Below, in pieces: positions 33,501 to 52,903 of a DNA stretch of 64,000 bases. Below the pieces are notes generated by a model. That model did not search any database. It had not been told where the DNA came from and saw only the letters and a list, made by a program, of their open reading frames with translations. This stretch comes from Anadara kagoshimensis. Lineage: Eukaryota > Mollusca > Bivalvia > Arcoida > Arcidae. The position numbers were made by a program, and so were the translations under genes. The stretch's first letter is position 1, and each line of letters opens with the position of its first letter. The stretch lies in assembly GCA_021292105.1 (NCBI GenBank), contig CM037869.1, forward strand, positions 29,341,536 through 29,405,535, read 5' to 3'.

Positions 33501-36500
33501 AAGTTCATCAAAAATAATTTCAACTAAAAATAAATCATTCAAAAATTGGATTCAACATTCACACAATAAGCTCTTCCACATATTGGTGGCCCGATGGTCT
33601 AAAAGCTGCACTTATAGATCATTGGGCTTCTCATCGCCTAGGTTTGAATCCCACTCTGCAGATGCCTGTGTGAGAAAGTGTCAGTTTGCTTGCCAAAGGT
33701 CGGGGGTTTTCTACTTGCACTTTAGTTTTCTTCACCATCCAAGAACTGATCGCCTTAATACAAGTGAAGGAATCTTGACTGGGGCATAACACAATATGAC
33801 TCCACTTTTCTACTGATCATGGATACTATACAAATATACTCCAAATTAAACATCCGTACCATGTTTTTTTTCTTTCTATATCTAAATCCAAAACCAGTAA
33901 TTCTGGTTTCCCATGTACAATTCTTACTTTGCTCAGTTTGTTTCATTCTTTTCTAGTTGTAAGCATCCTCTGTAGCGACCACAGGTGGCCTAATCTTTTT
34001 TTTAACTCTACAGAGGCATCTTTAGAGTGCACTGAGACACAAGACCACAATTTTGAGTCTCATCTGAAAGACTACTCCAGTAATGAGCTTTTTGCAGCTC
34101 TAGTATAGGCAGGAGATGAAAATCATCTCAGAAAATTTCATGAGTTAGGTTTCAATGCACAACCCTGGACTTTGAAAGCCAGTGATAGTATCACACATCC
34201 ATGGCAATCCATTGTTTTCATCTATTTGAATAGTGTTTAATGCTGTAGTTATTAACAAATCTAACCTTGACTGTGTCCTGGTGAGGTTTAACATCATGTA
34301 TAATAGCATTAATTAAATCTTCTTCTTCTGATGTTGAATCAACTAAAACACCAACATTCTGGAACCATGTGGTCAACGTATCATACACACATGTCCTTAA
34401 TGCACTACAGAAAAAAATATATGATAAGTTTTGTAAATTTGTGATTTATAGTTGTGGAGAACTATTTCGGACTAGAAGTAGGCTGGATGGACAGACCAAT
34501 AGATAGACAGATAAAACTTCAAATTTAATATCCCCCTCTCTTTGAAAGGAGGGGGTAAAAAATTATTATTAATGATCAATCTGTCTTGTCTACTAAAACA
34601 ACAAAGTTCTATAACCACAAGTTGGCTAACATTGAAGCCATCTTGAATCTATCGTCGTCAAGGTGACAACCATTCGAAACTAATTTGAATTTGGCCATAT
34701 GAAAATGAAGAAGACTGAGAATTGCTACTTGGAAATCTAAAATACGTAATTTACAACTGGTTTCCCATGCCAGTTGATTGTTAGTTTCATATTGATCAAT
34801 AGAAGTAAGCAAACAATTCATTCTAAAAACCGAGTGGTTAATGAAAACGAATCTAACCGGAATTTCCATTTTTACGATAATTGCTGATACCTTTGCTGCA
34901 ATACCTTAGTAAAATTGTAATAATTATGGAGAATCTATAATAGTTGGCATCTCTGCAAAATGCAAGTGACAAATTACAATCATATAAACTGTATCTGATC
35001 TATAATATTTCATGTCCTTACCTGTAAGGTCTACCTTGACCATACTGGACAGGTGTTGTGGTCCATACAAGTTCTTGTATTAACATGTTTAAGATCTGTT
35101 TTGTGTGTGGAAGTAATAGATTTTTACAGCTGCAAACAAATACAAACACTAAAACAGTGGGATGCCATTTCAAAAGTATAAGCAAAACCAACCCCAACAC
35201 TGAAAAGTGACGGACAAAATGTTGTCAAACGAAATGGAGTTAACACTATATGCCTCCCAATTTGTTTGGGGGCAAATAATGAACCAACTTGAATTAAATA
35301 TCACAGTGAAAACATAGATGATTGCCCTTTCTTAAATTTGAAGTATTTTAAATACATGTACAGTTAAACCTTATTCTAATGTGCCAAAAAAAAACTAAAC
35401 ATCTCGCTTTAGACCACAAAATTTTGAAGGTAGAAAAACTGTATCTTGTTGTGTTTTCTTTGAAAGCTTCATTTGATTTATCGCCAGACTCCTTTATAAT
35501 GTTTTAATTTTATCAAACAAAAGTTGGCAATGGATTGAGGCCTATGTTTAAAATATGCCTTGTTGTATATACATGTACATTTGAATTTTCATCTTAAAAT
35601 TTATCAGAAAAAAACCCATGCAAAATGTTATAATTTCTCATTAGCAAAAACCCAGATTTAAGTATAACCTCAAACAACATTAACCTGTTCACTTGACCTT
35701 TCATTAAGAATATTCACACAGGATGACCCATCCAATACATGGGTATTGATTTAGGATTTGCAGTTTAAACATAAAAAATGCACATTTACTATGATGTAAA
35801 CAAAAATTCACCTGTGGTCTCAATAAACAAAGGTACTGGTCCATAACAAATATTTAAATTAGAGGTCAAGCAGACAGGTCAATGTTGTTTGGCTATACAG
35901 GGTAGTACCTGTTAGTTAGTCCTCTAATAATCTGTACAGCAGATTTATGTATAGTTGGTAACTGTGTAAACAAACTCAGTCTCTCTGTTGTAGTCTTGTT
36001 TTTCTGAAAAAATATATACACATAATAGAAAAAAATGGAAACAAGTTGCATAATTTCAAATTAAACACTTTAAATAAAATTGTATTTCTGAGTGGAGAGC
36101 TCACTCTCCCTAAGAATGCTACATCTCAAATATCTAAGGTCTAACTCATGTAACTATTGTACAAACCATTTATATTTAAAACAAGAGGCCCATGGGCCTT
36201 AACGCTCACCTGTGACTTTGACCTTTGAACCCATAACCCTCATTGATATATCAAAATGATCATTAGGCCAATACCTACAATATTCTAACATACATGCCTA
36301 TAAAAAATATTTATAGTTTTCAAGATAATTAACCAATTCAGTATTAATTTGCATCTGTGACCTTGACCTTTGAACTCATGACCTTTATTTATATATCCAA
36401 ATTATCATTAGACCAATACCTACAATATTCCAATATATACAATATATATGCCTATACAAGGAGTTTATAGTTTTTGAGATAATCAACCATTTCAGTACTT

Positions 36501-39500
36501 ACTTGCATTTGTGACTTTGACCTTTGAACCCATGACCTTCATTCATATATCAAAATGACTGTTAGGCCAATATCTACAATATTCTAATATGTACAGTTTA
36601 TATTTTTTTTTTGATAATTTACCATTTCAGTACTTGTTTGCATCTGTGACCTTGACCTTTGAACCCATGACCTTTATTAATATATCAAAATGGCCATTGT
36701 GCCATTACCTACAATATTCTAATATGTATGTCTATATAAAAAGTTAATAGTTTTGCAGATAATCAACTATAACAGTAATAGTTGTGCATCTTTGACCTTG
36801 ACCTTTGAACCCATGACCTTGATCTATGTATCAAAATGATCGTCATGTCAATACCTACAATTAACTGAAAATCCCATGCCATTATCACCTAAAATGTTTA
36901 AAAAATAGCATTTTTTATCAAAGGTCAAAAACAGGGACATGACCTCGACCTTTGACATCTTTTGGAAGAAAATAGCAAGACAAGATCAACAGTGAAAACT
37001 CCATACAATTATCTTCAGCTGTTATTGAATTATAACAATAAATGTCTCATTTTTAAAATTACATAACTTTACGCAAAAAACGCGTAACCTATTTGTCGTT
37101 CAATTTTCATGAAAAACATAATTTTAATGTTCCCAGGTATGCTGAATCCAAATATCCATTCAAAATTTGCCTGCAATTTTTGGATTCAGAGAAGATTTTT
37201 TTGTCTTTTTGCTATTTTTAGTAACAGCAGCCATCTTGTTGGGCGTGGCCAAACCCCGAACACAATTTTCAAAGGCATGATAATCACCAAGTTTCATCAA
37301 ATTTGGCCCAGTACTTTTGGAGGAGAAGATTAAAATGTAAAGTTTACGCACGACGGACGACGCACGACGGACGGTGATAGATTGCAATAGCTCATCTGAG
37401 CCTTTGGCTCAGGTGAGCTAAAAAATTTTTTACAGATATACCTCTCTTAATTTCCAACATTTTTGTAAATAAAGTCCTTTTTAAAGTATTTTCTCCAACC
37501 TTGAGAAATATGTTACTTTTTTTTAAAGATCTTCTAAGAGAATTGTAGCAAATAGTGATTTTGGCTACCAGGAATGGAAACATAGTGCTTAGTTTCCCCA
37601 TTTGGGACCATAAAGCCAAGATTTGTTCAAATTATGACCCACATGCCCTAAGAATAAGATATCTAAGGTCTAGCACTTTTGAAGACTTTCACTAGTTCCT
37701 CCTTCATCGAGCCAATAGGTGACATAACTCCTTCATTTGTGTAAATCCAAACACAATATTCACCTATGCATGATTAAGGCAAAGTTTCACCAAAATTACT
37801 TCAGTAGTTTCATAAAAGATTAAAATGTAAAAGTTTGACTTAATGCAAGAAAACGACAAACAACAAATAATGAACTACCTCGGGTGAGCTAAAAGGTCCA
37901 AGTGACCTACAGGCTTGATATTAATTTCTCCCATATCAGACTTGATAATCCTGTGTTTCCAAATGATAAGATTTTTCTGTCTTACCCTTGAATAAAGACA
38001 TGCTACACAAACTATTACATCACAACAGCATTTCGGTTGTGACGTCAACAATTTAGATTGTGAAATCATTAGTTGCAAATAAAAACATTATACTTTTTGT
38101 GTACTGTTAGTTTCAGGATGATTTTTACCATAAAACCTTTATAAAACCAGAATATATTTGATATGGGAGAAAAAAATCAACCCGTTCTGTAGTGAAGACA
38201 TGGAAATCTCAATTTTTGGGATGAGAATTTCTGTCTTCACTTCAAAGAAGGAGTATATTCCATTGCTCATACCAGTATTTTACTGTTAACAGATAAAGCT
38301 TGTGATACTATATCAATGATGTCACCAACTGAAACTTTTACTGTCACTGAGAATGACTCGCTGAAATAACAAAATAATACAAGACATTATGCATTAATCA
38401 AAACCTGAACATACACTTTTCGAAAGACAATCTACTCTATTATCTTTGAATATCTCATTATAACACCCCTTTATTTCATTAGTTTAAAGAGGTCCCTGAT
38501 TTCCTTACCATATACCTTTGAGAATTTTTCTGGGAATTCTAAGAACTAGCACCCCTTGATAGATGTGAACTAATCTTGAAGGCGGCACAAGTTAGATTGA
38601 CTGTTAAAACCTAACCACAAATTTTAAGTTTTCTCTGGTAGCTCCAGTTTCCTCGTCATACTCAAAGAACCAATTATTTTTTTTACTTAACACTGATAAT
38701 CAGATTCTGATAAAGTGAATATTATACATACCTAATTAAAGCTTCCAAACAGGAGGACAACATCTCAAATCTTTTAGCCAGACAATTCATTCTATCTGGG
38801 TACTTATCTGTTACAGGACTGAGTGGTAGTGATGATGTGTATCTGTTTTGGTTCGCTGAACCTACAAATCATAGTAAGTGTACAGTAAACATAGTTATAA
38901 TGTCAATCTATACATGAACACCGAGTGATAGCCATGATGTGTATCTGTTTTGGCTGAGTGAACCTACAAACTGTTTTTGTCATAATAAGTGTATTGCCCC
39001 AGTTTCAAAATCATTCTTTGGCTAAGATTTTCCCTAAACTTAAATCTGGCAAAATTTCAAATCTTTATTTTTGGTAATTTTTTTAAAATATATTCTGGAA
39101 TTTAAGATGTCATGTAGTTCCAAAAGGATTAACACAATTTGTTAACATTAAGTTCAGGAAAATCTTAAGTAAGGATCAGTTATGTAAGGGGTCCAATAAA
39201 ACCTAGTTATAATGTTACTTTATATTGGTACACATCATTCTGTAATATCATCTCCTGCCTGCACCGTCATTCTGTCTCAAGTAAAGTCATTTTACTAATT
39301 GAAAACGTTCCCATGTGTAACAGGAAGTAAAAAAATTTCAAGGGTTTGACAGGAGCTCAAAGCAGTGATCTTCTGCACTACTGAGCTACGAATTGGCAGA
39401 AAGCTATATTTTTACTGTGTTTCTTGTGTTTATTAGTCTTGCAAGTTGAAAACTTCAACAAAGTGCTCTTGCATAGACTTTATATGGCAAGCAATTGCAA

Positions 39501-42500
39501 GACCCCCAACTTCCAAGGGCCACACTGGCAACCAAATGGTAAGGATGTCACTAGTAAAATATATGCACTAACGAAGTTATTACAGGAGTTCAATATTATG
39601 ATTTGTAATGGAAGATTCAGGACCTTTTGCCATTATTTTTGGGAGGTCCAAGATAAAGTTCTGTAAGTCCAATATCAATATTGAAAGGTCAATGTGCAAT
39701 TATGTTATATAGAAAAGAGAAAGTAGCATTATCATTGTAAAAAGCTACCTTTACACAAGAACTGTCTCATGAAAGCGAAGTACCCCCCCCCAATTATGCA
39801 CATAAATTTCGTCTCATCTCATGTTTGTTTACATTTGTGCTAAGTTTGATCAAATTTTATCCATAGATATGGAAGATATGGAGTGGACAGTGTATTGGGA
39901 TGGACAACCAGACAGGCAGACAGGGTGATTCCTATTTACCGCCCTAAACTTCGTTTGCGAGGGGAATAATTTGTTTGCTGGGGTATAATTAAGGGGCCCA
40001 ATGTGAAACCAATAGGTTCTGGACCTTGGACCCAGGGAATTCTGAACCGCTGTTGTTGGGCTAATGAGCTTTGAACAAATGGATCCTGGATGTTCACTTA
40101 CCAGCTAGTTGCAGTCCTTCATAAAGGTCAGTGACGGTCATCTGTAGACTGCCCAGTAGTTTATTACACTGATTTGACCAGATTTACTTACCAGCTAGTT
40201 GCAGTCCTTCATAAAGGTAAGTGACGGTCATCTGTAGACTGCCCAGTAGTTTATTACACTGATTTGACCAGATTTACTTACCAGCTAGTTGCAGTCCTTC
40301 ATAAAGGTAAGTGACGGTCATCTGTAGACTGCCCAGTAGTTTATTACACTGATTTGACCAGATTTACTTACCAGCTAGTTGCAGTCCTTCATAAAGGTCA
40401 GTGATGGTCATCTGTAGACTGCCCAGTAGTTTATTACACTGATTTGACCAGATTTACTTACCAGCTAGTTGCAGTCCTTCATAAAGGTCAGTAATGGTCA
40501 TCTGTAGACTGCCCAGTAGTTTATTACACTGATTTGACCAGCCTTCTGTATGTTTTATACCTAAGTTACCACTACCGCCACACCTGGCTACCACAGCGTA
40601 ACATCTAACTGCCTCCTGTAATGACAAGATATAGTCAACTCTATAATACATGTAAAATATAGGGTTATTGAACTGATATAGTGAAACATTGTCCAAAGAT
40701 GACTCCACATTTGCACGAGCAAAGTCAAAAAGGGACACTAGAAGTATTTAATCAAGTGAAATAAAAAAGAAAAAGTACTTTTTTATAACAATTTGCTACC
40801 CAGCTACAAAATTCATTAAGTGACATGAAGGTCGGTCAATACAAGCTGTAAGCTTTCCTTGGACTGGTGTCCAACAAGTAATCCAGTAAGTTAATATCAG
40901 TTCAATAATCCTTTTATTACATAACAAAATAATTTCTTTATTTCCCTCTAGTGTTTCATCTCAAAATATCATTTTGTCTCACAAAACATAAATATTGCAC
41001 TAGTTCTTGTACATGTATAAGAATATAAGAACTAGTGTGATATGACAACAACACAATGGTGGTGTCTTCAGCCATGTTTCAACTGTTGGATGAGGTCACA
41101 AATGACAGTAGTGTCACATAACAAAGTGTACAATATAAAAGATTAGTTTGGGAAACACCAAACAGGAAATAAAAGTTTTTGTCAACTCTGGATTTATCTT
41201 TTATGGTGGGCTGGACTCGATAGGTGGCAAGGTAGCTCAGTGGGTAGAGCATTCCACTAGTATTGGGAAGGTCCTGGGTTCGAGTGCCAATTTGACCACT
41301 GCACCTTTTCCTTTTCCTGTTACAGTTAATTTCTATGGAAGTAAATATTGCTATATAACTAAATATCTTATTAACTCCTGTTTATAACATTGCATACTTC
41401 CATAAAACATTTTATTATGCCTCTGTGATATCTTACTCATGTTAGTGAAATTGTAATGAGGTTAAACAACCAAGATAAACAGGTGTTTGGGTAGATCAAT
41501 TGGAGAGTCAAGGGTTCAAATTCTATGTGAGTTGTGTCGTCTTTCTTCAATTTCTTGTTACATACAGGTAAAAATTTTAAGATGGTTTTCTACAAACCTT
41601 GTTTACCAATCCTTTGTCTAATTCTTGTACAACAAAATTTTCTATTTTACCCTGAAATATAAAATAACAGAGAAATTCATAGTTGTGATAACTAGAACTT
41701 TAATTTGATTGTCCGATCTTGTTTTCATAAAAATTTATAGCTGTTGTAACTCGAATTTAATTTGATCGTTCGATCTTGTTTTCATAGAAATTTATAGTTG
41801 TTGTACGGTAACTCGAATTTAATTTGATTGTCTGATCTTGTTTTTATAGAAATTTATAGCTGTTATAACTTCACTCCTAATACAGGCTACACAGGTTTAC
41901 CATGCCTAAGGTTAAACATACAACTACATCAGCTTAGTTGGTAGAGTGTTCACTTCACATGTGGAAGGTTGTGGGTTCAGACCTTGTTAGGGGTCTGGCC
42001 AGGACTTGAAAATAAGAAGTGAGTATTGTTTTGCCAAGCACTTGGCATTTAGAAATTAAAGTTAGAGGGGCCTATGAAAGAGACATTAAAAACGAATGCC
42101 ACGTGTCATGGCAAGCATGGCACGTTAAAGAACCCTCCCTGCACACTGCCCTGAGCGCACTGCAAAGGTAAAAATTTCTGCAAATTTACCTATAGCTGGT
42201 GACATCTTGATATGAGTGAAATATTCTTGACTGGGATGTAAAACCCCATTCAATCAACTGAGAAGAGTAGATGCAATAATTTTGGTATTTCTTGTTTTCT
42301 GCCCATAGTTTCTGCCTACCAAAAAAGGAACCTATCATTATTCAATCAAGTGCTTAAAACTGGTTATAATTGCTCATTGACACATCACTAGTATCAGATA
42401 CAATTTTTAGAGTTGCATACCTTGAATGTTCCACAGGAACCAGGAAAATTGTCTATACAGGATATGATACATTTCAGAGCTTCTTCTTTCCACTGTAATA

Positions 42501-45500
42501 AAACAACAATAAATATCTTTATATTGGTAAATACTGTTTAATAGAGTCCCAGTCAAGAATATTTCACTTATATTGAGACGTCGCTAGCAATAGGCAAAGG
42601 GGCAAAAATTTTGCCTGTGCGCAGCGCTAATGGAATTATACAGCAGGGTTCTTTATCCTGCCACACCTGCTGTGACACAGGACCTTGTTTATTTTAAGTT
42701 CCCATTCAAAAGAACCATGACTTTCATTTTGTAATGCTGAGTGCTTGACGAAAGAACAGTCACTACACACTTTCAAGTCTTGGGTCAGACCCAGTCAGGG
42801 TTTGAACCCACAGCCTCCCACTTATGGAGCGAGCACTCTACCAACTGAGCTACCGCAGTGGAGGAGTAGTTCTCATAAGGCTAGGGATGGGAATCGGTTG
42901 GATTTTCACAATCAATGATAGGAACTTCTCAAGTAACTTATAATCAGAACAATATATAATTCAGATCTAAATTTTTAAATTCCCATCTGAAAGAACAGTG
43001 ACATTCATTTTGTAATGCTGTGTGCTTGGCGAAAGAATAGTCACTACCCACTTTCAAGTCTTGGGTCAGACCTGGTTGGGGTAACATCCCTCCCCCCCCT
43101 CCTCTGAATAAAAAAGAAGCTATTCCTCAGAGGGTCAATTTTAGGTAGAATGATTTTAATCAAAATACATTTCAAATCTATGAACCTTTATTTATACATG
43201 TAGGCAGACCAAATTTATTTCTTTACACAAGTCAAAAGAGTAGAATGGGTCTCGTTGACTTTGTGGTCTAAAGCATGCTTACAGATCACACCGTTTCATT
43301 TCAAATCCTACTTGGGCAGAACCTAGTGTGAGAAAGTTTGTCAGATCACTTGGTGGAGGTTGTTTTTCTCTGGGTACTTCAGTTTCCTCCACTATCTCAA
43401 AACTGACTGCCTCTATGTAAGTGAAAGAATCCTGACTTAAACGTAAAAAAAATCATGACTCCACTCAACTTCAAACAGATAGCCAAGATACTGTAAATGT
43501 ATTTAATTTCGCATGTATTTATTTTCGATGTAGAAGAAATTTAGACATATTTAAATTTTCATGTTTTTAAAATATGCATTATAGCACAATAAGCATAATA
43601 TAATTTCTGCCCAGTATTAATTTTCGCGCAAAACAAACAACCCCAAAATTTGCTAAAATTAGTACACCATGAAAATAAATATGTTTACAGTTTTTGAAAA
43701 CTTGTGTAAAACCCAAATACCTGATACATAAAAAACCTACCTGATCTGAGCTGGATATTAACACAGGTAACAACTGTGGAACTAATGAAGAAATGTCTCG
43801 ACTTAAGACAGTGAAAGTTGAGGCCTGGTCCAGAATTCTACAGCAGACATGACAAGATAACTTCTGTATATAAACAGGATCATGTGACTACAATATAAAG
43901 GATCATGTGACTACAATAAATACAATAAAAAGGATCATGTGACTGTGTTATAAAGGATCATGTGACTGTGTTATAAAGGATCATGTGACTACAATATAAA
44001 GTATTGTTTGACTACAATATAAAGAATCATGTGACTACAATATAAAAATCATGTGACTACAATATAAAGGATCATGTGACTACAATATAAAGGATCATGT
44101 GACCATGTGACTCAAAAATAAATGATCATGTGACTATAATATAAAGGATCATGCGACTACAATATAAAGGATCATGTGACTACAATATAAATGATCATGT
44201 GACTATAATATAAAGGATCATGCGACTACGATATAAAGGATCGTGTGACTACAATATAAAGGATCATGTGATCATGTGACTATAATATAAAGGATCATGT
44301 GACTATAATATAAAGGATCATGTGACTACAATATAAAGGATCATGTGACTACAATATAAAGGATCATGTGACTACAATATAAAGGATCATGTGACTACAA
44401 TATAAAGGATCATGCGACTACAATATAAAGGATCATGCGACTACAATATAAAGAATCATGTGACTACAATATAAAGGATCATGTGACTACAATATAAAGG
44501 ATCATGTGACCATGTGACTCAAAAATAAATGATCATGTGACTATAATATAAAGGATCATGCGACTACAATATAAAGGATCATGTGACTACAATATAAAGG
44601 ATCATGTGACTAAATATTAAGAATCTAGTAATGCCTTATAACTTTGAAATAGTTAAAATCAATTTAAAGATAAAACAATGATTTATATTTTTTGAGATAT
44701 CATTTTTATGTGGTTTAATAATTTTTCATACCTGCAAAATCTGTAAAATAAAGCGTAGCCATACAAGTGCATTCTGGGTAAACACATCTGTGACACATTG
44801 TTCTACCAATCTCTCTAACAGTAAAAGTCCTTCTAACCTGTGTAATAAACAAAAGTTGTTAAAACTGACTATACTTCTTGGTCTTAATTGTCAAACATAT
44901 GACAGAATACAAGTTAGGTTCACGATCTCGGTCGCCAAAATAGCCATTGATGATTAAATTGAAATTTGGCGATTAATTTTCGAAAATTTACAATTTTGAC
45001 AATTAATTATTTTCACAAAGAAAATTAGTAAATTGCCAATCATTCAAAGAAAACTAGTAAACTGCTGTAACAAGCTACATACTGATTGTTTCAGTACTCA
45101 CAGTAACAATATCAAAATTATCAAAATTACTGAAATGAAGATTACTATGGCAACTGTGAAAACCTCCAAATTTATTAAAAGGTATCATGTACTGTAGTTT
45201 TAAATAGTCATATATAATCTTAATTTTCAAGCCCATTTTTTAAACTCATTTTATCTATAGTAGGCAAAGTATTGATATACCTTATGTTAGTGAAATTTTC
45301 TTGACTAGAATTTCAGTTTCAAATTAAATTTGACTCTAAATCATGTAATTTTTAAATAATTATAATTTTCAAGCCTAAAAAGTTGGTTTTTTTTCTGAAC
45401 AAATTTATACTATAGTAGGTAAAGTATTTATATACAATATGGTAGTGAAATTTTATTGACTAGAATTTGAGTTTCAAATTAAATTGAATCTGAATCATGT

Positions 45501-48390
45501 AGTATTTTCAAGCCTAAAATGTTTGTTCTTCTTCAACACATTAAAACTATGGTAAGCAAAGTATTTGTATACCTTATCTATGTTTCCATTTCTGGTAGCC
45601 AAAATTGCCATTGGCTACTAATTTCTGAGGAATTCTTTCAAAAAGTACCGTAACCTATTTTAGCAAATTTGTGGAAAAATACTTTAAAAAAGACTATATT
45701 TTCTCAAATTTTGGAAATTTGGCTACTAATTATTTTAAATTTGTGGAAACCCAGCCTTATATTAGTAAAATGTTCTTGACTAGATTAAATTGACTCTGAA
45801 GTGTTACCTTTGTTTTGAAGAATTCAAACAACTGTGTATGTGACTTATTATGTCCTGTATATTACCAGTTTTCTGTAATAAAAATAAATACAAATCAAAA
45901 TCTAATTCAATGATGTAAAACCACTGCTATAGCTCAGTTGGTAAAGTGCTCACTTCGTATTTGGGAGCTAGGTCCTGGGGAATTTACCTTTATCAATAGT
46001 AATTTTTGGCAAACAAAATCTCTGAATTGAAACCACTTAGTTTCACCCTGGGACCATTTAAACCATTTCCTCACCGAGTGCCATGACTGGGGATCAAACC
46101 TGGCCCTCCTTGGTTAAAAGCGAGCATTCTACTACAAGGCTAAAAGATTCAGACCAGAAAGTCTGACAGTAAATCACTCTATTATATCTAGATTTATATA
46201 CAACACAACTAGGGATAGCACAATATAACAGTATACCGATATACCGGTCGATGGGCTACTCCTGACGATAATCAATACTTATCTAACATTAGACTAGTTT
46301 TTCTATCTGATTTGACGAAATACAAGTTTTCTCGAACACGTATGATACAGGATCTTGTATCACCACAGTGATAGATTTTTGGTGGTATTCGAATGCTAAA
46401 TTGGTATTCGAATATTCGTTCCTATAGGAAAACATGTGGTTAAAAAATAATTATGATGAAAGAATTCAACTTATATTTCGTCTGGAAGTATAAATATGTG
46501 ACACAGCAAAAACCTACTTTCAGATACTTCCTTTCTTTCTTCATGTTTATTAATAAAAAACTTTTATTAATCCAAACAGTCACCAGAAAGTCGGGAAAGA
46601 CTCCACAATCTGACAGAGACTGTTTACTTCCTGTCATTACATCATATCATGATTATGTCCCTTTAAATTCATTAAACATGTTATAATTGTTATTCAAGGT
46701 AGCAAAGTCGGTAACGACTATTTATCGGGTTAACGTAAAATATGGCTGTCACATGTTTTACTCCTTACATGGTCTTTATCATTAAATCTGGGTTTATTTA
46801 GAATATTAAAGAGATCATGATTTTATCATCATTATACAGCCTTCCTATGAATAAGTAATGAATAATAAGGTGATTTTTTCATCTGTTTCATGCATTCCAA
46901 ATCATTTCCATCCATAAATACATAGCTGTGTTTCAGAAAAGATGCAAAGTTTCTGTTTGGTGCCAAATATTCGAATAGGATTCAAATAACAGCCCACGAA
47001 TATTCGAATCCTAAATTTGGTATTTGTTTCAGCTCTACATTAAGGTATGTCATCAATTCTTGGGCACCTCTGAAAGGATGCGAAATCCTCCAGATGCTTG
47101 AGCACACCTTATTACAGTAAGAAGTACTGCAAGCGTATGCATTATTAAGATAGGCTTCAGTCTTTTAAGCCTCTAGCTTACATTGTTATGCACATGGTAA
47201 TTAGAAAATGCTTCATATGACATGATTTTAGGGAGTTAGATACGATGTATCAAGACTTTTCTCCATACAAATTATTTTTCTGATATGAATTGATAGTTAT
47301 CGGCATGAAAAGAACAATAATTGATATTGAATTTCAGCAGGGATAATGAGATACATTTGGAGGGAAACAGTATCAGGACCGCATCTTGTGTGCAGAACAG
47401 TGAATTACCACACACTGTTCACATTTCTATGTTGATTACGTCACTGATAACACCATTTACGTCACAATGTCTTCGGTTTTCCGGGAAGCATATTTCTTAA
47501 AAATTCATGCGTAAACAGTAAAAATTTATCTGGATCTTATAATTTTAATCTTAAATTATAAGATCTAGATACATCTTTTGATTGGTGTTATCGGTGACGT
47601 AATCAACAATGAAATATTAACAGTCTGTGGCAATTCGCTGCCCCGCAGACGCGAAGCGGTCCTGATACTGTTTCCCGCCATATGTATCTCATTAGCCCTA
47701 AACACAACAATACCATGGCTAGCTCAGTCCCACTACATCATTATAATTATCTATGCATCTTTAACAAAAATGACTGATTGACTGAATGGGGTTTATGTCC
47801 CAGTCAAGGATATTTCATTTATATTGAGATGTCACCAGTTAAATTTAAAGTGGCAGAAAGTAACCTTTACAGTGCGCTAAGGCCAATGTGCAGGGAGGGT
47901 TCTTTAACGGGCATGCCAGGCATTTGATTTTAAGATCTTTTCTAAAAGACTGTTTGACTTTCATTTCTAAATGTTGAATGCTTGGCGAAAGACCCCACAA
48001 CATCCCACATATGAAGCGAGCACTCTACCACTACAGTAATCGAGTTTATATCATAGTGGCCTTGAACACAGGCACTTGTAATGTCTGTGACAGTCCCCAA
48101 AAAATATTTAGGGGAGATTTTGTTATTTCGGGCATTGTGACAGTCATTACAAGTGCCTGTGGTTTTGCACAAAATTGGAAATTAATCAACAGCTGATCAA
48201 GTGGCCGAATACTACACCCTGATCGAATATACTCCCGCGGTGCCTCTAATTTGTATATGTTCACCTGTTGTCTTAAGACTTGAAGTTGATCTAAAACGTG
48301 TAAATGATGTATCGTGTCGTTCAATTCGTTGGTTTTGTCACAGATGTTTGAAGCCAAATGCAAAACCACGTTATCCATGGAAGCAGCCAT
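21590..48390 (-). CDS. PELP1: PELP1 (proline-, glutamate- and leucine-rich protein 1), complete, 17 exons, 823 aa
   Basis: Exons in transcript order: 48390-48265, 45872-45808, 44837-44732, 43863-43741, 42492-42421, 41651-41598, 40615-40462, 38861-38732, 38360-38273, 36003-35909, 35129-35022, 34404-34266, 33211-33055, 28483-28428, 27464-27258, 23038-22304, 21646-21590. All junctions are GT-AG and phases agree throughout. Resemblance to human PELP1, as recalled, is clear: GIKHTEGW (human GLKHTESW), NCRHSLYKVLQACVL, and YCKECLRVCEVLIHPRAPCF (human SFCSEALVTCAALTHPRVPP). Residues 1-560 form the RIX1-type helical repeats; 561-805 are disordered; the end DEELGAMLSSF matches the human DDTAAMLADF. 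LxxLL motifs occur at 65-69 (LEGLL) and 474-478; a KKKKK signal at 438-442. PELP1 scaffolds TEX10, WDR18 and SENP3 in 60S maturation and coregulates nuclear receptors. The long Glu tract of mammals is absent. Exon 14 is the least certain. Confidence 0.88.
22304..23038 (-). CDS. PELP1: PELP1 exon 16: end of the helical repeat and disordered acidic tail
   Basis: This large 735-bp exon begins after TTTACAG with VSSYCKECLRVCEV, the last conserved helical segment. It then encodes about 220 Ser/Asn/Asp-rich residues with a short acidic NEDDMMEMD stretch. The frame runs on into a stop two codons past the donor, but GAT|GTAAGT at 22304/22303 is a strong donor in phase 0. The next exon (21646-21590) restores the conserved C-terminus, so splicing here is favoured over termination. 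Read-through would remove only the 18-residue tail. Confidence 0.85.
23354..23406. repeat. Perfect 19-bp inverted repeat hairpin
   Basis: acttaaacaaattatattt is followed by a 14-15-bp loop and then its exact reverse complement, in PELP1 intron 15. AT-rich; function unknown. Confidence 0.8.
23890..25433 (+). mobile_element. Hairpin-ended element with ~145-bp core, opposite orientation to 6152-8493
   Basis: The core (about seven units) is the reverse complement of the 6152-8493 core: gtgaccttgacctttgaaccc-like blocks alternate with ctacaacattctaatatac. The right end has the simple repeat (CGCACACA) and the hairpin agctcacatgacctttcggtc to ggtgagct. The left aggcccatgggcct end is not seen, so the left boundary is approximate. 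It lies in PELP1 intron 15 and has no coding capacity. Confidence 0.55.
25434..26865 (+). mobile_element. Hairpin-ended element(s) with ~305-bp core
   Basis: A first short copy ends at about 25550 with cgcctttggccaggtgagct. A longer one (25551-26865) has about four ~300-bp units with aatttgaactaaatcggtcc, ggcggccatcttggatgc, a gtacaaactttaatctactc block and ctaatttgcatattccgct. It ends in a (CGCA)n run and the hairpin tagctggctatagccagttg. Same tail logic as the elements at 6152 and 15534, with a third, unrelated core. In PELP1 intron 15; non-coding. Confidence 0.55.
27043..27241. mobile_element. ~200-bp MITE next to the PELP1 exon 15 donor
   Basis: Ends are inverted: a left attgacgtatcgccggtcat against a right gaccggcgatccgtcaat. 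The interior has short GC-richer blocks (gaccgccatcatggcgacaa). It ends 17 bp from the last base of exon 15 (27258), so it forms the start of intron 15. Confidence 0.65.
27905..28271. repeat. 31-bp minisatellite, 12 copies
   Basis: Twelve near-identical units built from attgaaaataagtacttaat and tttgtttgtt(c/a) repeat with constant 31-bp period. It lies in PELP1 intron 14, ~155 bp from the exon 14 donor. Very low divergence suggests recent or ongoing length change. Confidence 0.9.
28618..28970 (+). mobile_element. SINE family C, copy 2
   Basis: The head has ggccgtggtggtctattgga. The body shares gtgactgggggagtggtatg, the taaagtcgccccgagtgcg block and tgtcgcgaataactgaaaa with 20645-21045. It is inserted in PELP1 intron 13, antisense to the gene. 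Confidence 0.6.
29030..31488 (+). mobile_element. Ty3/Gypsy LTR retrotransposon remnant
   Basis: A fossil LTR element in PELP1 intron 13, antisense to the gene. It is bounded by 5-bp direct repeats ATTTG (29025-29029 and 31489-31493). Parts: a partial 5' LTR (29030 to about 29286), a short pol remnant carrying the end of reverse transcriptase and RNase H (29292-30086), a purine-rich tract just before 30120, and a complete 3' LTR (30120-31488). The element is broken: gag, protease, most of reverse transcriptase and integrase are absent. The shared LTR stretch is almost identical between the two ends, so the insertion is young. Family call from the RT/RNase H type. Confidence 0.85.
30120..31488 (+). 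repeat. 3' LTR of the Ty3/Gypsy remnant (1.37 kb)
   Basis: It starts TGTTAC and ends GTAACA, the usual inverted LTR ends. A TATA-like ggtataaaag lies near 30395, and short gagatgtaaaataat tandem repeats lie near 30660-30730. The right boundary is fixed by the ATTTG target duplication at 31489-31493. Confidence 0.8.
31545..31870 (+). mobile_element. SINE family A copy
   Basis: tRNA head ctcagatggtagagtgctcg with B-box gaattcgaaccctgatc, then family body cttttgccaagcgctcagca, and a diverged tail gtgaaatgttattgacttg. In PELP1 intron 13, just right of the LTR element. Confidence 0.6.
32105..32272. repeat. Foldback element, ~56-bp arms
   Basis: The arm with gttcatcaagtaatgaacca and agattttaaaac is answered by its near-exact complement about 50 bp later; the arms themselves contain smaller palindromes. 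Located in PELP1 intron 13. No coding sequence. The stretch 32273-32715 to its right has no recognised feature. Confidence 0.75.
32715..32962 (+). repeat. Dispersed repeat family R, copy 4
   Basis: Blocks tgacgttccatagttccatg, gcagctagcaaacaaggagg, a ggtagaagttcacatgttta block and tttgacagggattggtg match the other R copies. It ends ~90 bp before the exon 13 donor of PELP1. Confidence 0.55.
33570..33812 (+). mobile_element. SINE family B copy in PELP1 intron 12
   Basis: Head tggcccgatggtctaaaagc, then gcttgccaaaggtcgggggt, a ttcttcaccatccaagaact block and tcttgactggggcataacac, matching the copies at 11653 and 43246. Antisense to PELP1. Confidence 0.6.
35672..35895. mobile_element. Short inverted-repeat element (MITE), copy 2
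   Basis: Same ends as 5326-5535: caacattaacctgttcactt on the left and agcagacaggtcaatgttg on the right, with the aatacatg block inside. It ends 14 bp from the last base of PELP1 exon 10 (35909), so the donor region of intron 10 is element sequence. Confidence 0.65.
36181..37421 (+). mobile_element. Hairpin-ended element with diverged ~145-bp core
   Basis: The most complete pair of ends in this window: it starts acaagaggcccatgggcctt then aacgctcacctg, and ends with gacggacgacgcacgacgg, then agctcatctgagcctttggc to ggtgagcta. The core has about five diverged units with gaccttgacctttgaaccca and cctacaatattctaa, related to the cores at 6152 and 23890 but older. It lies in PELP1 intron 9. A further worn tail follows at 37422-37892, ending in cgggtgagctaaaagg. 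Confidence 0.6.
37893..38272. other. Intronic, no gene seen
   Basis: PELP1 intron 9, next to the exon 9 donor. It contains an inverted pair: cataaaacc and ggttttat type words around 38130, and gaagacatggaaatctcaat near 38200 answered by attgagattt-like words; the symmetry is weak. Nothing coding. Confidence 0.35.
38861..38985 (-). repeat. Duplicate of the PELP1 exon 8 acceptor region
   Basis: The segment around the exon 8 acceptor (tgatgtgtatctgttttgg, then gaacctacaaa, then ataataagtgt-like sequence) occurs again at about 38935-38985, ~85 bp further into intron 7. The second copy keeps a TAG|GTTCA acceptor-like motif and part of the exon coding sequence. It looks like a local tandem duplication with about 15% divergence. 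Confidence 0.6.
39850..39970 (+). repeat. Worn element tail in PELP1 intron 7
   Basis: The acagacaggcagacagggtg-type run followed by ccgccctaaacttcg and gcgaggggaataa resembles tails at 28340-28420, 34480-34560 and 61045-61130, which end in a purine/pyrimidine hairpin. These look like 3' ends of another hairpin-tailed molluscan repeat. No gene. Confidence 0.4.
40096..40551 (-). repeat. 90-bp tandem array carrying five copies of the PELP1 exon 7 donor
   Basis: The donor-containing word cttaccagctagttgcag starts at 40097, 40187, 40277, 40367 and 40457, exactly 90 bp apart. The copy at 40457 is the true end of exon 7; the other four lie in intron 7 and repeat the last ~76 bp of the exon plus the first ~14 bp of the intron. 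The copies differ at only a few positions. On the mRNA strand each reads CTG|GTAAGT. Reading past the first donor gives Gly-Lys-stop (GGTAAGTAA), so use of any downstream donor would truncate PELP1 near residue 234. Confidence 0.95.
41215..41295 (+). mobile_element. tRNA-like SINE head
   Basis: ggtagctcagtgggtagagc (A-box) and gtcctgggttcgagtgcc (B-box) are well preserved over ~75 bp. The acceptor stem does not pair convincingly and the following sequence lacks a known SINE body, so it is called a SINE head rather than a tRNA gene. Confidence 0.45.
41925..42260 (+). mobile_element. Full-length SINE family A copy in PELP1 intron 5
   Basis: Head cttagttggtagagtgttca and gtgggttcagaccttg, body ttgttttgccaagcacttgg and a cacgttaaagaaccctccct block, tail tgagtgaaatattcttgact with (CAAT)n end. 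Antisense to PELP1. Confidence 0.65.
42545..42865 (-). mobile_element. Full-length SINE family A copy, minus strand
   Basis: On the minus strand it reads A-box gctcagttggtagagtgctc, B-box gtgggttcaaaccctgac, body and tail as in other A copies. It starts ~50 bp upstream of the PELP1 exon 5 acceptor region and is in sense with the gene. Confidence 0.65.
42884..43082 (-). mobile_element. hAT-like end fragment plus truncated SINE A
   Basis: ctagggatgggaatcggtt at 42884 is a typical hAT-type terminal word. From 42970 a partial minus-strand family A SINE (ccatctgaaagaacagtgac, gcttggcgaaagaatagtca) follows, stopping in the B-box region. Confidence 0.4.
43246..43468 (+). mobile_element. SINE family B copy in PELP1 intron 4
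   Basis: Blocks gactttgtggtctaaagcat, caaatcctacttgggcaga, cagtttcctccactatctc and aatcctgacttaaacgtaaa match family B. Antisense to PELP1. Confidence 0.55.
43875..44615. repeat. 22-bp minisatellite (about 33 copies) abutting the PELP1 exon 4 acceptor
   Basis: Unit aaggatcatgtgactacaat plus at repeats through almost the whole of intron 3, with a few irregular joints. Each unit contains TCATGTGAC, an M-box-type E-box recognised by MITF/TFE proteins. On the mRNA strand each unit contains ATATTGTAG|T, an acceptor-like word, and the last unit runs to within ~12 bp of the true acceptor at 43863/43864. Because introns need a pyrimidine tract and branch point there, the array supplies them. Confidence 0.9.
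44838..45807. other. PELP1 intron 2, no gene seen
   Basis: Contains three to four diverged repeats of ~250 bp near 45180-45790 (gtaggcaaagtattgatata, gaaattttcttgactagaat, tttcaagccta). The recurring ttgactagaat word suggests worn SINE tails. Nothing coding. Confidence 0.4.
45925..46210. mobile_element. Truncated SINE head (+) and inverted tRNA-headed repeat (-)
   Basis: 45925-45985 is a family A head (tagctcagttggtaaagtgc). 46040-46210 on the minus strand matches the duplicated repeat at 10100-10500 (aaaagcgagcattctactac, aagtctgacagtaaatcact). Both lie in PELP1 intron 1. Confidence 0.5.
46220..47035. mobile_element. Possible foldback/hAT-like element with attcgaat ends
   Basis: tggtattcgaatgctaaatt near 46380 is mirrored by gaatcctaaatttggtattt near 47005, with aatattcg words at both ends and ~580 bp between. 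No transposase. The boundaries are uncertain. Confidence 0.35.
47338..47697. mobile_element. ~360-bp foldback element in PELP1 intron 1
   Basis: Outer arms pair (agggataatgagatacattt against atgtatctcattagccct; gggaaacagtatcaggaccg against cggtcctgatactgtttccc). Inner arms pair (gttgattacgtcactgataa against ttatcggtgacgtaatcaac). Even the centre is symmetric (cttataattttaa). The whole element is one long imperfect palindrome. Confidence 0.75.
47775..48045 (-). mobile_element. SINE family A copy, minus strand
   Basis: Minus-strand family A body and tail (tgaaatatccttgactggga tail, a gcgcactgtaaaggttac block, a cccgttaaagaaccctccc block) with a damaged head ending in agtggtagagtgctcgct. It lies in PELP1 intron 1, in sense. 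Confidence 0.6.
48061..48170. repeat. Inverted repeat (aggcacttgtaatg arms) near PELP1 exon 1
   Basis: acaggcacttgtaatg at about 48068 is mirrored by cattacaagtgcctgt at about 48146, with gacagtc words beside both. This ~110-bp hairpin lies ~95 bp into intron 1. It creates a false open frame continuing past the exon 1 donor. Confidence 0.65.
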
Positions 48391-49901: not shown

Positions 49902-50891
49902 TTAGTCCTCTTCGTGCGTATGTGCACATAAGGCCACCACCAGCTCTCTCCACAACTGCCTGTCCTTAGCCTTTTTTTCCGCTTCCTTCCATCCCATCCC
50001 CATCTCTTTCAGCTCTTTCTCTACTGTCCGCCTCCATGTTTCCTTCGGCCTTCCCCGCTTCCTCTTCCCATCTGGTGTCCATTTTAGTGAGACTCTGGTG
50101 GTACTGTTGTTATCTTGTCTCATCACATGTCCAATCCACCGCCATCTTCGTTGTTTTATTTCTGTTCTGATATCCTTCTGGGCACAGATTTCATGTAGTC
50201 TCTTGTTACTTATTTTTCTTGGCCAGTAGATCTTGCATATCCTTCTGAGGCAGGTGTTATGGAATGCGGCCAGTTTTTGAAAATCAGTCTGGGTAACTCT
50301 CCAGCATTCTGAACCATACAATAGCACAGATTTCACATTGCTATTGTAGATTCTTAGTTTGGTGGTTTTGGAAAGCATTCCTGATTTCCAGATGGAGTGT
50401 AGTTGTCTAAAGGCTGATCTTGCTTTACCTATCCTAGATTTGATGTCTTTGGATGCTCCATTGTCATTGCTGATGGTGCTGCCCAGATATGTGAAGTCCT
50501 CTGTTTCTTCGATTATTCCATTGTTTATCTGTATCGGTGTTCCAGTTGTGTTCTCATTGATAGACATGACTTTTGTTTTACTGGTGTTGATCTTCAATCC
50601 CACCTTAGCTGTTACTGCGCATATCTTGTCGGTCTTTATCTGCATGTGCCTTCTGTTGTTGGATATGAGACAAATATCATCTGCGAAGTCTAGATCTTCG
50701 AGGAATGTACTGAGTGTCCATCTTATTCCTGTGTTTTGGTTGCCGAGTGTTGTTCGCATGCACCAGTCGATGACAACAAGAAAGAGTAACGGTGAAATAA
50801 CACAACCCTGTCTCACTCCCGTCTGTATTTCGAACCACTCGGACAGCTGACCTTGGTGTAATACACTGCATTTGTAGTTGTCATAAAACAT
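49902..50891 (-). CDS. RTE-like LINE: C-terminal reverse transcriptase and tail domain
   Basis: This is the frame that continues the polymerase after the break. TGVRQGCVISPLLF and LDFADDICLI are RT blocks; FADD holds the catalytic aspartates. Then comes a thumb (DFTYLGSTISNDNG) and the C-terminal RRWRWIGHVMRQ and KRGRPKETWRRTVEKELK region usual for these LINEs. The Met used as start is internal to the polymerase; in the intact element it would not be a separate protein. Upstream, 50892-51020 continues the same frame with KASDSVNR, where most relatives have KAFDSVNR. Confidence 0.8.
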   Translation of the reverse strand: MFYDNYKCSVLHQGQLSEWFEIQTGVRQGCVISPLLFLVVIDWCMRTTLGNQNTGIRWTLSTFLEDLDFADDICLISNNRRHMQIKTDKICAVTAKVGLKINTSKTKVMSINENTTGTPIQINNGIIEETEDFTYLGSTISNDNGASKDIKSRIGKARSAFRQLHSIWKSGMLSKTTKLRIYNSNVKSVLLYGSECWRVTQTDFQKLAAFHNTCLRRICKIYWPRKISNKRLHEICAQKDIRTEIKQRRWRWIGHVMRQDNNSTTRVSLKWTPDGKRKRGRPKETWRRTVEKELKEMGMGWKEAEKKAKDRQLWRELVVALCAHTHEED

Positions 50892-51001
50892 CTTGATTAT
50901 CTGTATTATTTTTGGTGGTAGCCCGTATGCCAGTAATATTTTCCAGATAGATCCCCTGTTGACACTGTCGGATGCTTTATGGAAGTCAATGAAGTTTAGA
51001 A

Positions 51002-52903
51002 TTAATTTGTTCTGCCATTCGATACTTTGCTCAATGATGTTTCTGATAGCAATATATGGTCTATGCAGCTTTTGTTGGCTCTGAATCCAGCTTGCTCATT
51101 GCGTAATTTTTTATCGATGGCTGCAGATATCCTGTTGGCAATAACTCTAAGGAATACTTTACTAGGGACTGATAACAGAGAAATCCCTCGCCAGTTATTA
51201 CAATTCTTTAGATCACCTTTTTTAGGGAGTGGTATTATGACTCCTTTGGTCCAGTCTTCAGGTATTTCTTCCCTAATCCAGATGCTCCTAAATAGCTCTA
51301 CTAGCATTTTAGATGTCATATCAATGTCTGTTTTTAGGAGTTCTGCTGGTATGTTATCGAGACCTGCAGCTTTACCATTTTTTAGTTTTAGGATGGCCTT
51401 TTTTATCTCTGCTTCACTAATGGGGTTTATGTTGATGTCTATTTCATCTCCAATAGGTTGTATGTGGAGGTCTTTATCTATTATATTTGTATTCAGGATA
51501 TCTCTGAAATGTTCCGCCCAACGTTTTAGTTTGTCTTCATCTGATGTTAGTGTCTGTCCTTCCTTGTTCAACAGTGGTTTATCGCTACTTATTGTCTTTC
51601 CACTTAGCTGTCTGCTGATCTTATACACCGTACTGAGTTCTCCTTTCTTAGCTGCTGTTTCTGCTTCTCCTGCCAATTCTTCCATATATCTCCTTTTATC
51701 AAGCTTGGCCCTATTCTTAACCTCTTTGTCTAGTTTTTTGTATTCTTCGTGTAGTTTATGCTTTAGTCTCTCAGATTTTGCATTTTCAAATTTGATTTTT
51801 ACACCTTTCCTTTCCTCAACTGTCTTCCAGGTGTTGTCAGTCATCCAAATTTTCCTCTTTCTGTTCTTAAACCCTAGTATTTTCTCTGATGTCATTGTGT
51901 ATGCTTCTTTCACTATCTCCCAGTTTGTAGTAATTTCATCTAGATTGTTTTCATGTAGACTATTTAACAGTTGGTATCGGTTTCTTAATTCTACACTGAA
52001 CTTCTGTCTTACTTGCTGGTCTTTCAGTTTGCTAGTGTCATATATTTTCCTTTTCATTTCATTCTGTTTTGGTGCCTTTTTCAGTTTCAATCTTATTTTA
52101 CCAATGAGCAGTTGATGGTCACTGTTACAGTCTGCCCCTCTCATTGCTCTTACATCAAAAAGGGAGCTTTTCCATCTCCCATTTATCATCAAATGGTCTA
52201 TTTGACTTTTGTCCCGTCTGTTTGGCGAGTTCCATGTTATTTTGTGAATTTCTTTATGTTGGAATAAAGTCCCACCAATAACTAGATCGTTGGCACCACA
52301 AAAGTCTATGAGCATTTCTCCATTCTCATTGCAAATTCCACTTCCATGTCTTCCCATAATTTGTTCTACTCCTTCGTTATTTGTTCCAACTTTTGCATTT
52401 AGGTCTCCGTTAACTATGATGACATCGTGTTCTGGCACCTCACTAATAACACTTTGCAGTTTTTCGTAGAAGTCTGATTTCTGTTCTTCATCAGCTTCAT
52501 TCGTTGGAGAGTAGCATTGTATGAGTGTTAATTTTGCAAATTTTGAGTAAAACCTCGCTGTTATAATTCTTTGGTCTACTGGTTTCCAAGCAAGGAGTGA
52601 TGACTTAACTGCTTTGCTCAAGATGATAGCCACTCCTTCGTGGTGTTTGTTATCACTTCTTCCCGAGTATAGTATTCTTTCTCCTGTGGCTGTTGTAATT
52701 GCCCCGCATCCTGTCCATCTGCATTCGCTTACACCCAATATGTCGATCTTATACCTCTGCATTTCTCTTATAACTTGTGCAGTCTTTCCTACTTCATACA
52801 TAGTGCGAACATTCCATCCGCCTACTCGAATCAGGGATTTAGGTCCCAGAAGCCCATTCTTCATGTCGCCAGCTTCCCAACGGCTTTCACTGGTAACATT
52901 CAT
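51002..52903 (-). CDS. RTE-like LINE: apurinic-type endonuclease and N-terminal reverse transcriptase
   Basis: Starts MNVTSESRWEAG; residues ~28-270 are an exonuclease-endonuclease-phosphatase domain with GGWNVRTM, a SECRW block, a GDLNAKVG motif, and SDHQLL near the end, containing the catalytic Asn, Asp and His positions. A Lys/Glu-rich linker follows (~275-460). The reverse transcriptase begins with KAAGLDNIPAELLK and NWRGISLLS. The frame ends at a stop soon after CIDHILL. Compared with the family, a one-base change of frame lies close to 51030-51050, because the expected continuation (IIEQSIEWQNK) is readable in the next frame. These proteins are often annotated as craniofacial development protein 2-like in invertebrate genomes. 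Confidence 0.8.
   Translation of the reverse strand: MNVTSESRWEAGDMKNGLLGPKSLIRVGGWNVRTMYEVGKTAQVIREMQRYKIDILGVSECRWTGCGAITTATGERILYSGRSDNKHHEGVAIILSKAVKSSLLAWKPVDQRIITARFYSKFAKLTLIQCYSPTNEADEEQKSDFYEKLQSVISEVPEHDVIIVNGDLNAKVGTNNEGVEQIMGRHGSGICNENGEMLIDFCGANDLVIGGTLFQHKEIHKITWNSPNRRDKSQIDHLMINGRWKSSLFDVRAMRGADCNSDHQLLIGKIRLKLKKAPKQNEMKRKIYDTSKLKDQQVRQKFSVELRNRYQLLNSLHENNLDEITTNWEIVKEAYTMTSEKILGFKNRKRKIWMTDNTWKTVEERKGVKIKFENAKSERLKHKLHEEYKKLDKEVKNRAKLDKRRYMEELAGEAETAAKKGELSTVYKISRQLSGKTISSDKPLLNKEGQTLTSDEDKLKRWAEHFRDILNTNIIDKDLHIQPIGDEIDININPISEAEIKKAILKLKNGKAAGLDNIPAELLKTDIDMTSKMLVELFRSIWIREEIPEDWTKGVIIPLPKKGDLKNCNNWRGISLLSVPSKVFLRVIANRISAAIDKKLRNEQAGFRANKSCIDHILLSETSLSKVSNGRTN

What the first reader, a model, noticed from the sequence alone, without database searches (positions are those of the whole stretch)
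40096..40551. Five 90-bp tandem copies of the PELP1 exon 7 5' splice site
Seen: the last ~76 bp of exon 7 plus the start of intron 7 are repeated with exact 90-bp period, every copy keeping CTG|GTAAGT. Known: U1 can bind any such donor, and donor choice in tandem sets follows strength and position. Inference: using a downstream copy adds an immediate in-frame stop (GGT AAG TAA), so the array could act as a donor-competition switch between full PELP1 and a ~234-residue or NMD product, or as a U1 sponge. The few differences between copies imply recent origin and likely copy-number variation.
Basis: partly seen in the sequence, partly recalled or inferred. Interest (0 to 1): 0.72.

Follow-up and report, generated by a model that had tools for sequence, protein, structure and literature searches.

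The report
Repeated splice site in PELP1 gene
The end of one exon of an animal ribosome-assembly gene, with its splice signal, is stuttered five times in a row; only the first copy gives a working protein, so the rest most likely sit harmlessly in the intron as a length-variable repeat.

Summary
Five 90-bp units (window 40092-40541, minus strand) each carry the last 80 bp of exon 7 plus 10 bp of intron 7, and all five keep CTG|GTAAGT. The gene is an animal PELP1. The assembly holds a second copy of the locus 1.6 Mb away on the same contig with only TWO units. Unit number therefore differs between two copies about 4% diverged, and the array is unlikely to be a one-off assembly error. Whether the second copy is an unmerged haplotype or a paralogue is open. 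Only donor 1 (40461) leaves the frame open. Donors 2-5 add a TAA 82-352 nt before the next exon junction, which predicts NMD. The intact donors are what chance allows (P = 0.47), and folding is unremarkable. Both flanking introns are long, and in human minigenes with identical donors in exon-defined exons the upstream donor was used exclusively (PMC9225289). Best reading: an ordinary minisatellite born at an exon-intron border and removed as intron by use of donor 1. A switch is possible but unsupported, and a U1 sponge is implausible. No RNA was examined. Two other splice sites of this gene also lie in or beside tandem copies of themselves.

The parts
40452..40541 (-). Unit A1: last 80 bp of PELP1 exon 7 with donor D1 (first intron base 40461), then GTAAGTAAAT
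   Evidence: only donor of the five that keeps the frame open (306 aa over exons 1-9)
40362..40451 (-). Unit A2, donor D2 at 40371; 1 difference from A1
   Evidence: use gives stop after 235 aa, 82 nt before the next junction
40272..40361 (-). Unit A3, donor D3 at 40281; identical to A4
40182..40271 (-). Unit A4, donor D4 at 40191
40092..40181 (-). Unit A5, donor D5 at 40101, followed by unique intron sequence (GTAAGTGAAC type, shared with the last unit of the second locus)
40462..40615 (-). PELP1 exon 7 as used with D1 (154 nt)
   Evidence: open frame joining exons 6 and 8; alignment to PDB PELP1 chains runs across the junction
38273..48390 (-). PELP1 exons 1-9: 48390-48265, 45872-45808, 44837-44732, 43863-43741, 42492-42421, 41651-41598, 40615-40462, 38861-38732, 38360-38273
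   Evidence: exon borders chosen by hand, introns between them GT-AG; RIX1 Pfam E 2e-14, PELP1 chains E 7.7e-33. Later exons not modelled; 2 of 10 ORFs scanned (34221-34445, 22298-23185) hit PELP1_HEAT below the gathering score
38818..38970 (-). Duplicated acceptor region of exon 8: true acceptor 38861 and a decayed upstream copy at 38963 (102 bp apart, 84% over 51 nt)
   Evidence: a second match to the exon 8 acceptor region is also present at the second locus
43876..44625 (-). 23-bp minisatellite of acceptor-like units (..TTTATATTGTAG) reaching to the 3' splice site of exon 4, which reads like a last diverged unit
   Evidence: 25 unit cores here, 13 at the second locus

Best explanation
A tandem duplication whose unit spans the exon 7 / intron 7 border of PELP1 became a 90-bp minisatellite. 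The 5'-most unit is still joined to the intact front of exon 7, so splicing from donor 1 makes normal PELP1 and turns the further units into intron. Extra units are then nearly invisible to selection, and unit number drifts (5 here, 2 at the related locus). Long flanking introns (982 and 1600 nt) imply exon definition, which favours donor 1 (exon 154 nt) over donors 2-5 (244, 334, 424, 514 nt). Occasional use of donors 2-5 would give an NMD-type transcript and act at most as a small leak. Shown here: array, frame consequences, unit-number difference, no sign of constraint on the donors. Inferred: use of donor 1, neutrality, NMD.
For: Of the five donors only D1->exon 8 is open through exons 1-9 (306 aa). 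D2-D5 stop after 235 aa, 82/172/262/352 nt before the next junction. At the second locus D1 is likewise open and D2 stops after 235 aa. The alignment to solved PELP1 chains runs across the D1 junction. Both copies keep the frame: 11 of 918 nt differ, dN 0.0070, dS 0.0306, with GT-AG introns between the nine exons of the second copy. Seven units (5 + 2) vary at 7 of 90 columns, none in the 9-nt donor, P = 0.465 if variable columns fall at random. Donor 9-mers are identical, and folding z-scores lie between -0.59 and 0.29 for the 7 stretches folded. Minigenes with two identical CAG/guaagu donors in exon-defined exons used the upstream one exclusively (PMC9225289, section 8 read). Variable tandem repeats at exon-intron borders of near-identical loci are described in human (PMC2812944, passages).
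Against: No RNA evidence at all. The classical intron-proximity rule of Reed and Maniatis (as reported in PMC9225289) and SRSF1 (PMC5585400, passages) favour the downstream donor, which here would mean mostly non-productive transcripts. The exon-definition data are human. Constraint downstream of the array is only weakly shown: exons 8-9 differ at 6 of 219 nt with 3 residue changes (dN 0.018, dS 0.062), against 5 of 699 nt with 2 residue changes in exons 1-7 (dN 0.0036, dS 0.0204), so somewhat faster evolution after the array is not excluded. No outgroup was available, so 2->5 versus 5->2 is not settled.
Confidence: 0.76

Rival explanations
1. Donor-competition switch: D1 gives PELP1, D2-D5 give a poison (PTC) transcript removed by NMD, and unit number tunes PELP1 output.
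For: The four extra donors have the same strong 9-mer and each gives a stop 82-352 nt upstream of a junction, the geometry of poison exons. Intron-proximal donors are favoured in classical assays (as reported in PMC9225289). Unit number differs between loci.
Against: No constraint detectable on the extra donors (P = 0.465). The exon-defined setting favours D1. Local accessibility of D3-D5 is lower than that of D1 and D2 in two of three settings, if anything against their use. Conservation outside this genome could not be tested.
Confidence: 0.13
2. Intron gain in progress: a donor of one unit pairs with an AG in the next, making new mini-introns or mini-exons.
For: Tandem duplications across or near exon-intron borders have created introns (PMC4974935, passages; PMC2891723, abstract; PMC2812944, passages).
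Against: Of 100 donor/AG/donor combinations tried (one mini-exon each, intron of at least 30 nt), 8 keep the frame and all 8 need mini-exons of 3 or 15 nt. No AGGT in 7 of 7 units. No pyrimidine tract in the unit (by eye).
Confidence: 0.03
3. Assembly artefact: the array or its unit number is a mis-assembly.
For: No reads could be examined. The two PELP1 loci may themselves be an unpurged haplotype pair: mostly collinear where sampled over about 190 kb, and other C13 stretches also have partners on C13 (28.6 with 26.69 Mb inverted, 10.0 with 8.34 Mb at 98%).
Against: Both loci carry the same duplication with the same junction and the same last-unit signature, with locus-specific substitutions; a stutter error would hardly give that.
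Confidence: 0.05
4. U1 sponge or a structural RNA element.
For: Five strong-core donors in a row; units A3 and A4 carry ACTTACC, complementary to GGTAAGT, and short 44-nt folds of A3 and A5 (-7.0, -7.4) are lower than those of A1 (-5.1), B1 (-5.2) and B2 (-4.8).
Against: Folding is no better than shuffles (7 stretches, z -0.59 to 0.29). Four extra sites in one transcript cannot titrate U1 (general knowledge, recalled).
Confidence: 0.01

Closest known systems
Variable internal tandem repeats at exon-intron boundaries of human genes in segmental duplications (PMC2812944; passages seen)
   Same: Minisatellite-sized units, copy number differing between near-identical loci, some at the exon-intron boundary
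   Different: Those were found through transcripts and lengthen exons or create introns. Here the unit carries a full donor and the extra copies are predicted to be intronic; no transcripts seen.
Fission-yeast genes with multiple tandem copies of a 24-bp AGGT segment, an intron spanning four or two copies (Zhu and Niu 2013, as reported in PMC4974935, passage)
   Same: Several tandem copies each carrying a potential donor, spliced out as intron
   Different: Exonic AGGT units supply both donor and acceptor of a new intron; here the unit is at an existing donor and the intron is old
[quoted passage not shown] Drosophila cases, PMC2891723, abstract)
   Same: A short tandem duplication, in potato spanning an exon-intron border
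   Different: In potato the duplicate spans the 3' (acceptor) side and yields a new spliced intron. Here it spans the donor side and lengthens the old intron.
Alternative 5' splice sites coupled to nonsense-mediated decay (general knowledge, recalled)
   Same: Each downstream donor adds a premature stop more than 50 nt before a junction
   Different: Use and regulation not shown; five identical tandem donors rather than one alternative site
Duplicated-donor minigenes (PMC9225289; abstract, section 8 and passages; Reed and Maniatis as reported there)
   Same: Identical competing donors in one exon
   Different: Engineered pairs in human cells, 52 nt apart, not a natural five-fold array

Membership tests
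Tandem repeat (minisatellite) at an exon-intron boundary | Two or more head-to-tail units covering the boundary | tested here: met
Tandem repeat (minisatellite) at an exon-intron boundary | Unit number varies between near-identical loci or alleles | tested here: met
   5 versus 2 units; variation between individuals not testable
Tandem repeat (minisatellite) at an exon-intron boundary | Transcripts show the effect on gene structure | not testable with these tools
   no RNA data; no processed copy seen in the assembly either (24 matches, 23 at the two loci exon by exon, 1 weak on C17; only the best candidates are scored)
Intron gain by AGGT tandem duplication | Duplicated segment carries AGGT supplying donor and acceptor | tested here: not met
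   AGGT in 0 of 7 units
Intron gain by AGGT tandem duplication | New intron can be removed leaving an open frame | tested here: inconclusive
   8 of 100 combinations open, all 8 with 3- or 15-nt mini-exons
Alternative 5' splice site coupled to NMD | Alternative site adds a stop more than 50-55 nt before a junction | tested here: met
   82, 172, 262, 352 nt for D2-D5; the 50-55 nt limit is recalled
Alternative 5' splice site coupled to NMD | Alternative site is used, regulated and conserved | not testable with these tools
   no transcripts and no related genomes held ('It has no relatives here')
PELP1 (Rix1-complex subunit) | RIX1 domain and sequence similarity to PELP1 | tested here: met
   PF08167 E 2e-14; solved PELP1 chains E 7.7e-33 over residues 49-304

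The most novel reading that the evidence does not exclude
In this gene splice sites themselves seed minisatellites. Three borders carry tandem copies of their own splice-site region (donor of exon 7: 5 vs 2 units; acceptor of exon 4: 25 vs 13 cores; acceptor of exon 8: 2 copies at both loci), so the splice junction, or RNA-DNA events there, may promote local duplication. Unit number could then set how much transcript is lost to non-productive splicing.
Probability: 0.07. Interest if true: 0.6.

Novelty: new member of a known kind. Interest (0 to 1): 0.3.

Why it matters
It is a clean natural test of donor choice: five identical donors, 90 nt apart, of which only one gives protein, and a second locus with two. 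Junction reads alone would show whether cross-exon proximity (donor 1) or intron proximity (donor 5) rules in this animal. If donor 1 is used exclusively, it also shows how an exon-border duplication becomes intron without harm.

Tried and rejected
RNA folding of units and donor accessibility: no structure beyond shuffles. P(unpaired) of the 9-mers is low for all donors. D3-D5 are lower than D1 and D2 in two of three settings, and in one (150/100) lower than the 8 other donors of the gene as well; in the other two settings they lie inside the range of those donors (no shuffle control). ACTTACC in A3/A4, complementary to the donor, was considered as a decoy-silencing hairpin and dropped: 60-nt folds of A1 and A3 have nearly equal energy (-10.6 and -10.7), though 44-nt folds differ more (A1 -5.1, A3 -7.0, A5 -7.4, B1 -5.2, B2 -4.8).

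Retrocopies that would reveal the donor used in germ cells: none seen. The protein search gave 24 matches, 23 exon-wise at the two loci and one weak on C17 (only the best candidates are scored).

Internal mini-exons and new introns: 100 combinations, 8 open, all 8 with 3- or 15-nt exons.

Haplotype versus paralogue for the second locus, tested by sampling. Stretches at 29.28 and 29.47 Mb have partners at 27.685 and 27.865 Mb, but the 29.47 stretch belongs to a local family with four further places at 29.51-29.69 Mb of nearly the same score, so it marks the end of the block only weakly. No partner of comparable length was listed on C13 for 29.9 or 27.5 Mb. 28.6 Mb has an inverted partner at 26.69 Mb (pieces of 85-96%). 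10.0 Mb has a 98% partner at 8.34 Mb over 3.5 kb (the first 2,470 bases of that query are N). 29.6 Mb lies in a local repeat family and its own place was not listed. C1:20.0 Mb has none. L043, L044, L049, L050 and L053 were fetched but not searched. I lean to an unmerged haplotype (about 0.6), but 4.3% substitutions and many indels also fit a segmental duplication. Each search scores about 40 candidates, so absence is weak.

In the dot-plot I kept 46 of 290 BLAST rows (at least 300 bp and 85%); 244 were dropped, 49 of them long but under 85% (recount). One kept row is inverted.

Literature: searches on tandem, VNTR or minisatellite splice sites and on competing donors (lists cut at 8-20 of up to 1,022 papers) showed no natural multi-copy array at an existing donor among the titles and abstract starts listed. 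The nearest is the fission-yeast case quoted in PMC4974935. The bivalve haplotig search was seen as a listing and not used. The PELP1/mollusc search was uninformative: 0 of the 8 papers listed contains 'PELP1'. Species not identified; a bivalve-like mollusc is my guess from repeat style and from contig numbers up to about C19 for long contigs in the hits (recalled, not tested).

Full report
The array. Tandem Repeats Finder places a 90-bp repeat with 5.0 copies, 98% matches and no indels at 40096-40541. Read on the minus strand, each unit is 80 bp of exon followed by the intron start GTAAGT and four more bases. The units run from A1 40541-40452 to A5 40181-40092, and the donors' first intron bases are 40461, 40371, 40281, 40191 and 40101. 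A 460-bp query over the array matches two places in the 1.115-Gb assembly: itself and C13:27771372-27771560.

The gene. Nine exons with GT-AG introns between them join into an open 306-codon frame starting at 48390. The product matches Pfam RIX1 (E 2e-14) and solved PELP1 chains (E 7.7e-33, residues 49-304). The alignment runs across the exon 7-exon 8 junction made with donor 1. Later exons were not modelled. Of ten ORFs scanned, two (34221-34445 and 22298-23185) give weak matches to the PELP1 middle domain, below the gathering score.

A second locus. A protein search lists 24 matches: 23 exon-wise at two places on C13, same strand, and one weak on C17. The second copy (C13 27,788,868-27,768,202) has all nine exons with GT-AG introns between them and two units instead of five. 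Comparing 104 kb around the window with 90 kb around the second copy, 46 of 290 BLAST rows pass 300 bp and 85%. They run collinearly apart from one inverted row and repeat-array rows, with identities of 86-98% and many insertions. Over the window, 25 chained blocks (35,480 aligned bases, blocks of at least 300 bp) give 4.3% substitutions. The first nine exons differ at 11 of 918 nt, giving 5 residue changes, dN 0.0070 and dS 0.0306. Samples at 29.28 and 29.47 Mb also find partners at 27.685 and 27.865 Mb, the latter within a local repeat family; stretches between the samples were not read. No comparable partner on C13 was listed for 29.9 or 27.5 Mb. Two other C13 samples have partners on C13, one inverted; 29.6 Mb was uninformative; a C1 sample has none. 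This fits haplotypes left unmerged and scaffolded side by side, but a large segmental duplication is not excluded.

History of the units. The seven units vary at 7 of 90 columns. The last units A5 and B2 share GTAAGTGAAC, and the five earlier ones share GTAAGTAAAT, so the common ancestor most simply had at least two units. Three were added in A, or lost in B, afterwards. A3 and A4 are identical. No variable column falls in the 9-nt donor, but chance alone gives this with P = 0.465, so there is no sign that the extra donors are kept by selection.

Consequences for splicing. Donor 1 to exon 8 is open. Donors 2-5 each read into GGT AAG TAA and stop after 235 residues, 82, 172, 262 and 352 nt before the next junction, beyond the usual 50-55 nt limit for NMD (limit recalled). 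The second locus behaves alike: D1 open, D2 stops after 235. Of 100 donor/AG/donor combinations inside the array 8 stay open, all with 3- or 15-nt mini-exons. The nine-base donors are identical, so position and context decide. Introns 6 and 7 are 982 and 1600 nt (from the coordinates), so exon definition is expected. In human minigenes with two identical strong donors in exon-defined exons, the upstream donor was used exclusively (PMC9225289, section 8). Under intron definition the downstream one is favoured (Reed and Maniatis as reported there). Donor 1 is therefore the likelier choice. Constraint on the protein beyond the array is compatible with this but weakly measured: exons 8-9 differ at 6 of 219 nt with 3 residue changes (dN 0.018, dS 0.062), exons 1-7 at 5 of 699 nt with 2 (dN 0.0036, dS 0.0204). 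Folding of 7 stretches is no better than shuffles. Accessibility is low at all donors and lower at D3-D5 than at D1 and D2 in two of three settings.

Other borders of the same gene. Intron 3 ends in a 23-bp minisatellite whose unit TCACATGATCCTTTATATTGTAG resembles the true acceptor TCACATGATCCTGTTTATATACAG of exon 4. It has 25 unit cores in the window and 13 at the second locus. The acceptor region of exon 8 has an upstream copy 102 bp away, 84% identical over 51 nt, with a like second match at the second locus; using it gives a stop. A 62-bp array ends 20 bp from exon 6. This clustering was not tested against a genome-wide expectation and may be chance in a region rich in tandem repeats (56 TRF rows in 64 kb, some overlapping).

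Verdict. A real, well-described array and a natural experiment in donor choice, but most likely a neutral minisatellite that became intron by virtue of donor 1. Variable repeats at exon-intron borders (PMC2812944, passages) and border-spanning tandem duplications (PMC4974935, passages) are known kinds.

Noticed in passing
window 43876-44625: 23-bp minisatellite of acceptor-like units reaching to the exon 4 acceptor of PELP1, which reads like a last diverged unit; 25 cores here versus 13 at the second locus.
   Followed up: partly
window 38818-38970: Exon 8 acceptor region duplicated 102 bp upstream (84% over 51 nt), with a like match at the second locus; the upstream copy leads to a stop.
   Followed up: partly
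window 40214 and 40304 (+ strand): The G-to-T change shared by units A3 and A4 creates AAGGTAAGT on the opposite strand, an antisense donor-like motif.
   Followed up: no
C13:27.685-27.865 Mb versus 29.28-29.47 Mb; also 28.60/26.69 Mb (inverted) and 10.00/8.34 Mb: Partners within C13, suggesting unmerged haplotypes or segmental duplications in this assembly.
   Followed up: partly
C13:29.47, 29.51, 29.57, 29.635, 29.69 Mb: A local cluster of 2-4 kb repeats, five places on this side; on the other side the listed matches lie at 27.864-27.870 Mb (capped list).
   Followed up: no
window 49902-52981 (-) and 29277-30086 (+): Long ORFs that look like a non-LTR reverse transcriptase/endonuclease element and a Gypsy-like pol fragment (by eye, not tested).
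   Followed up: no
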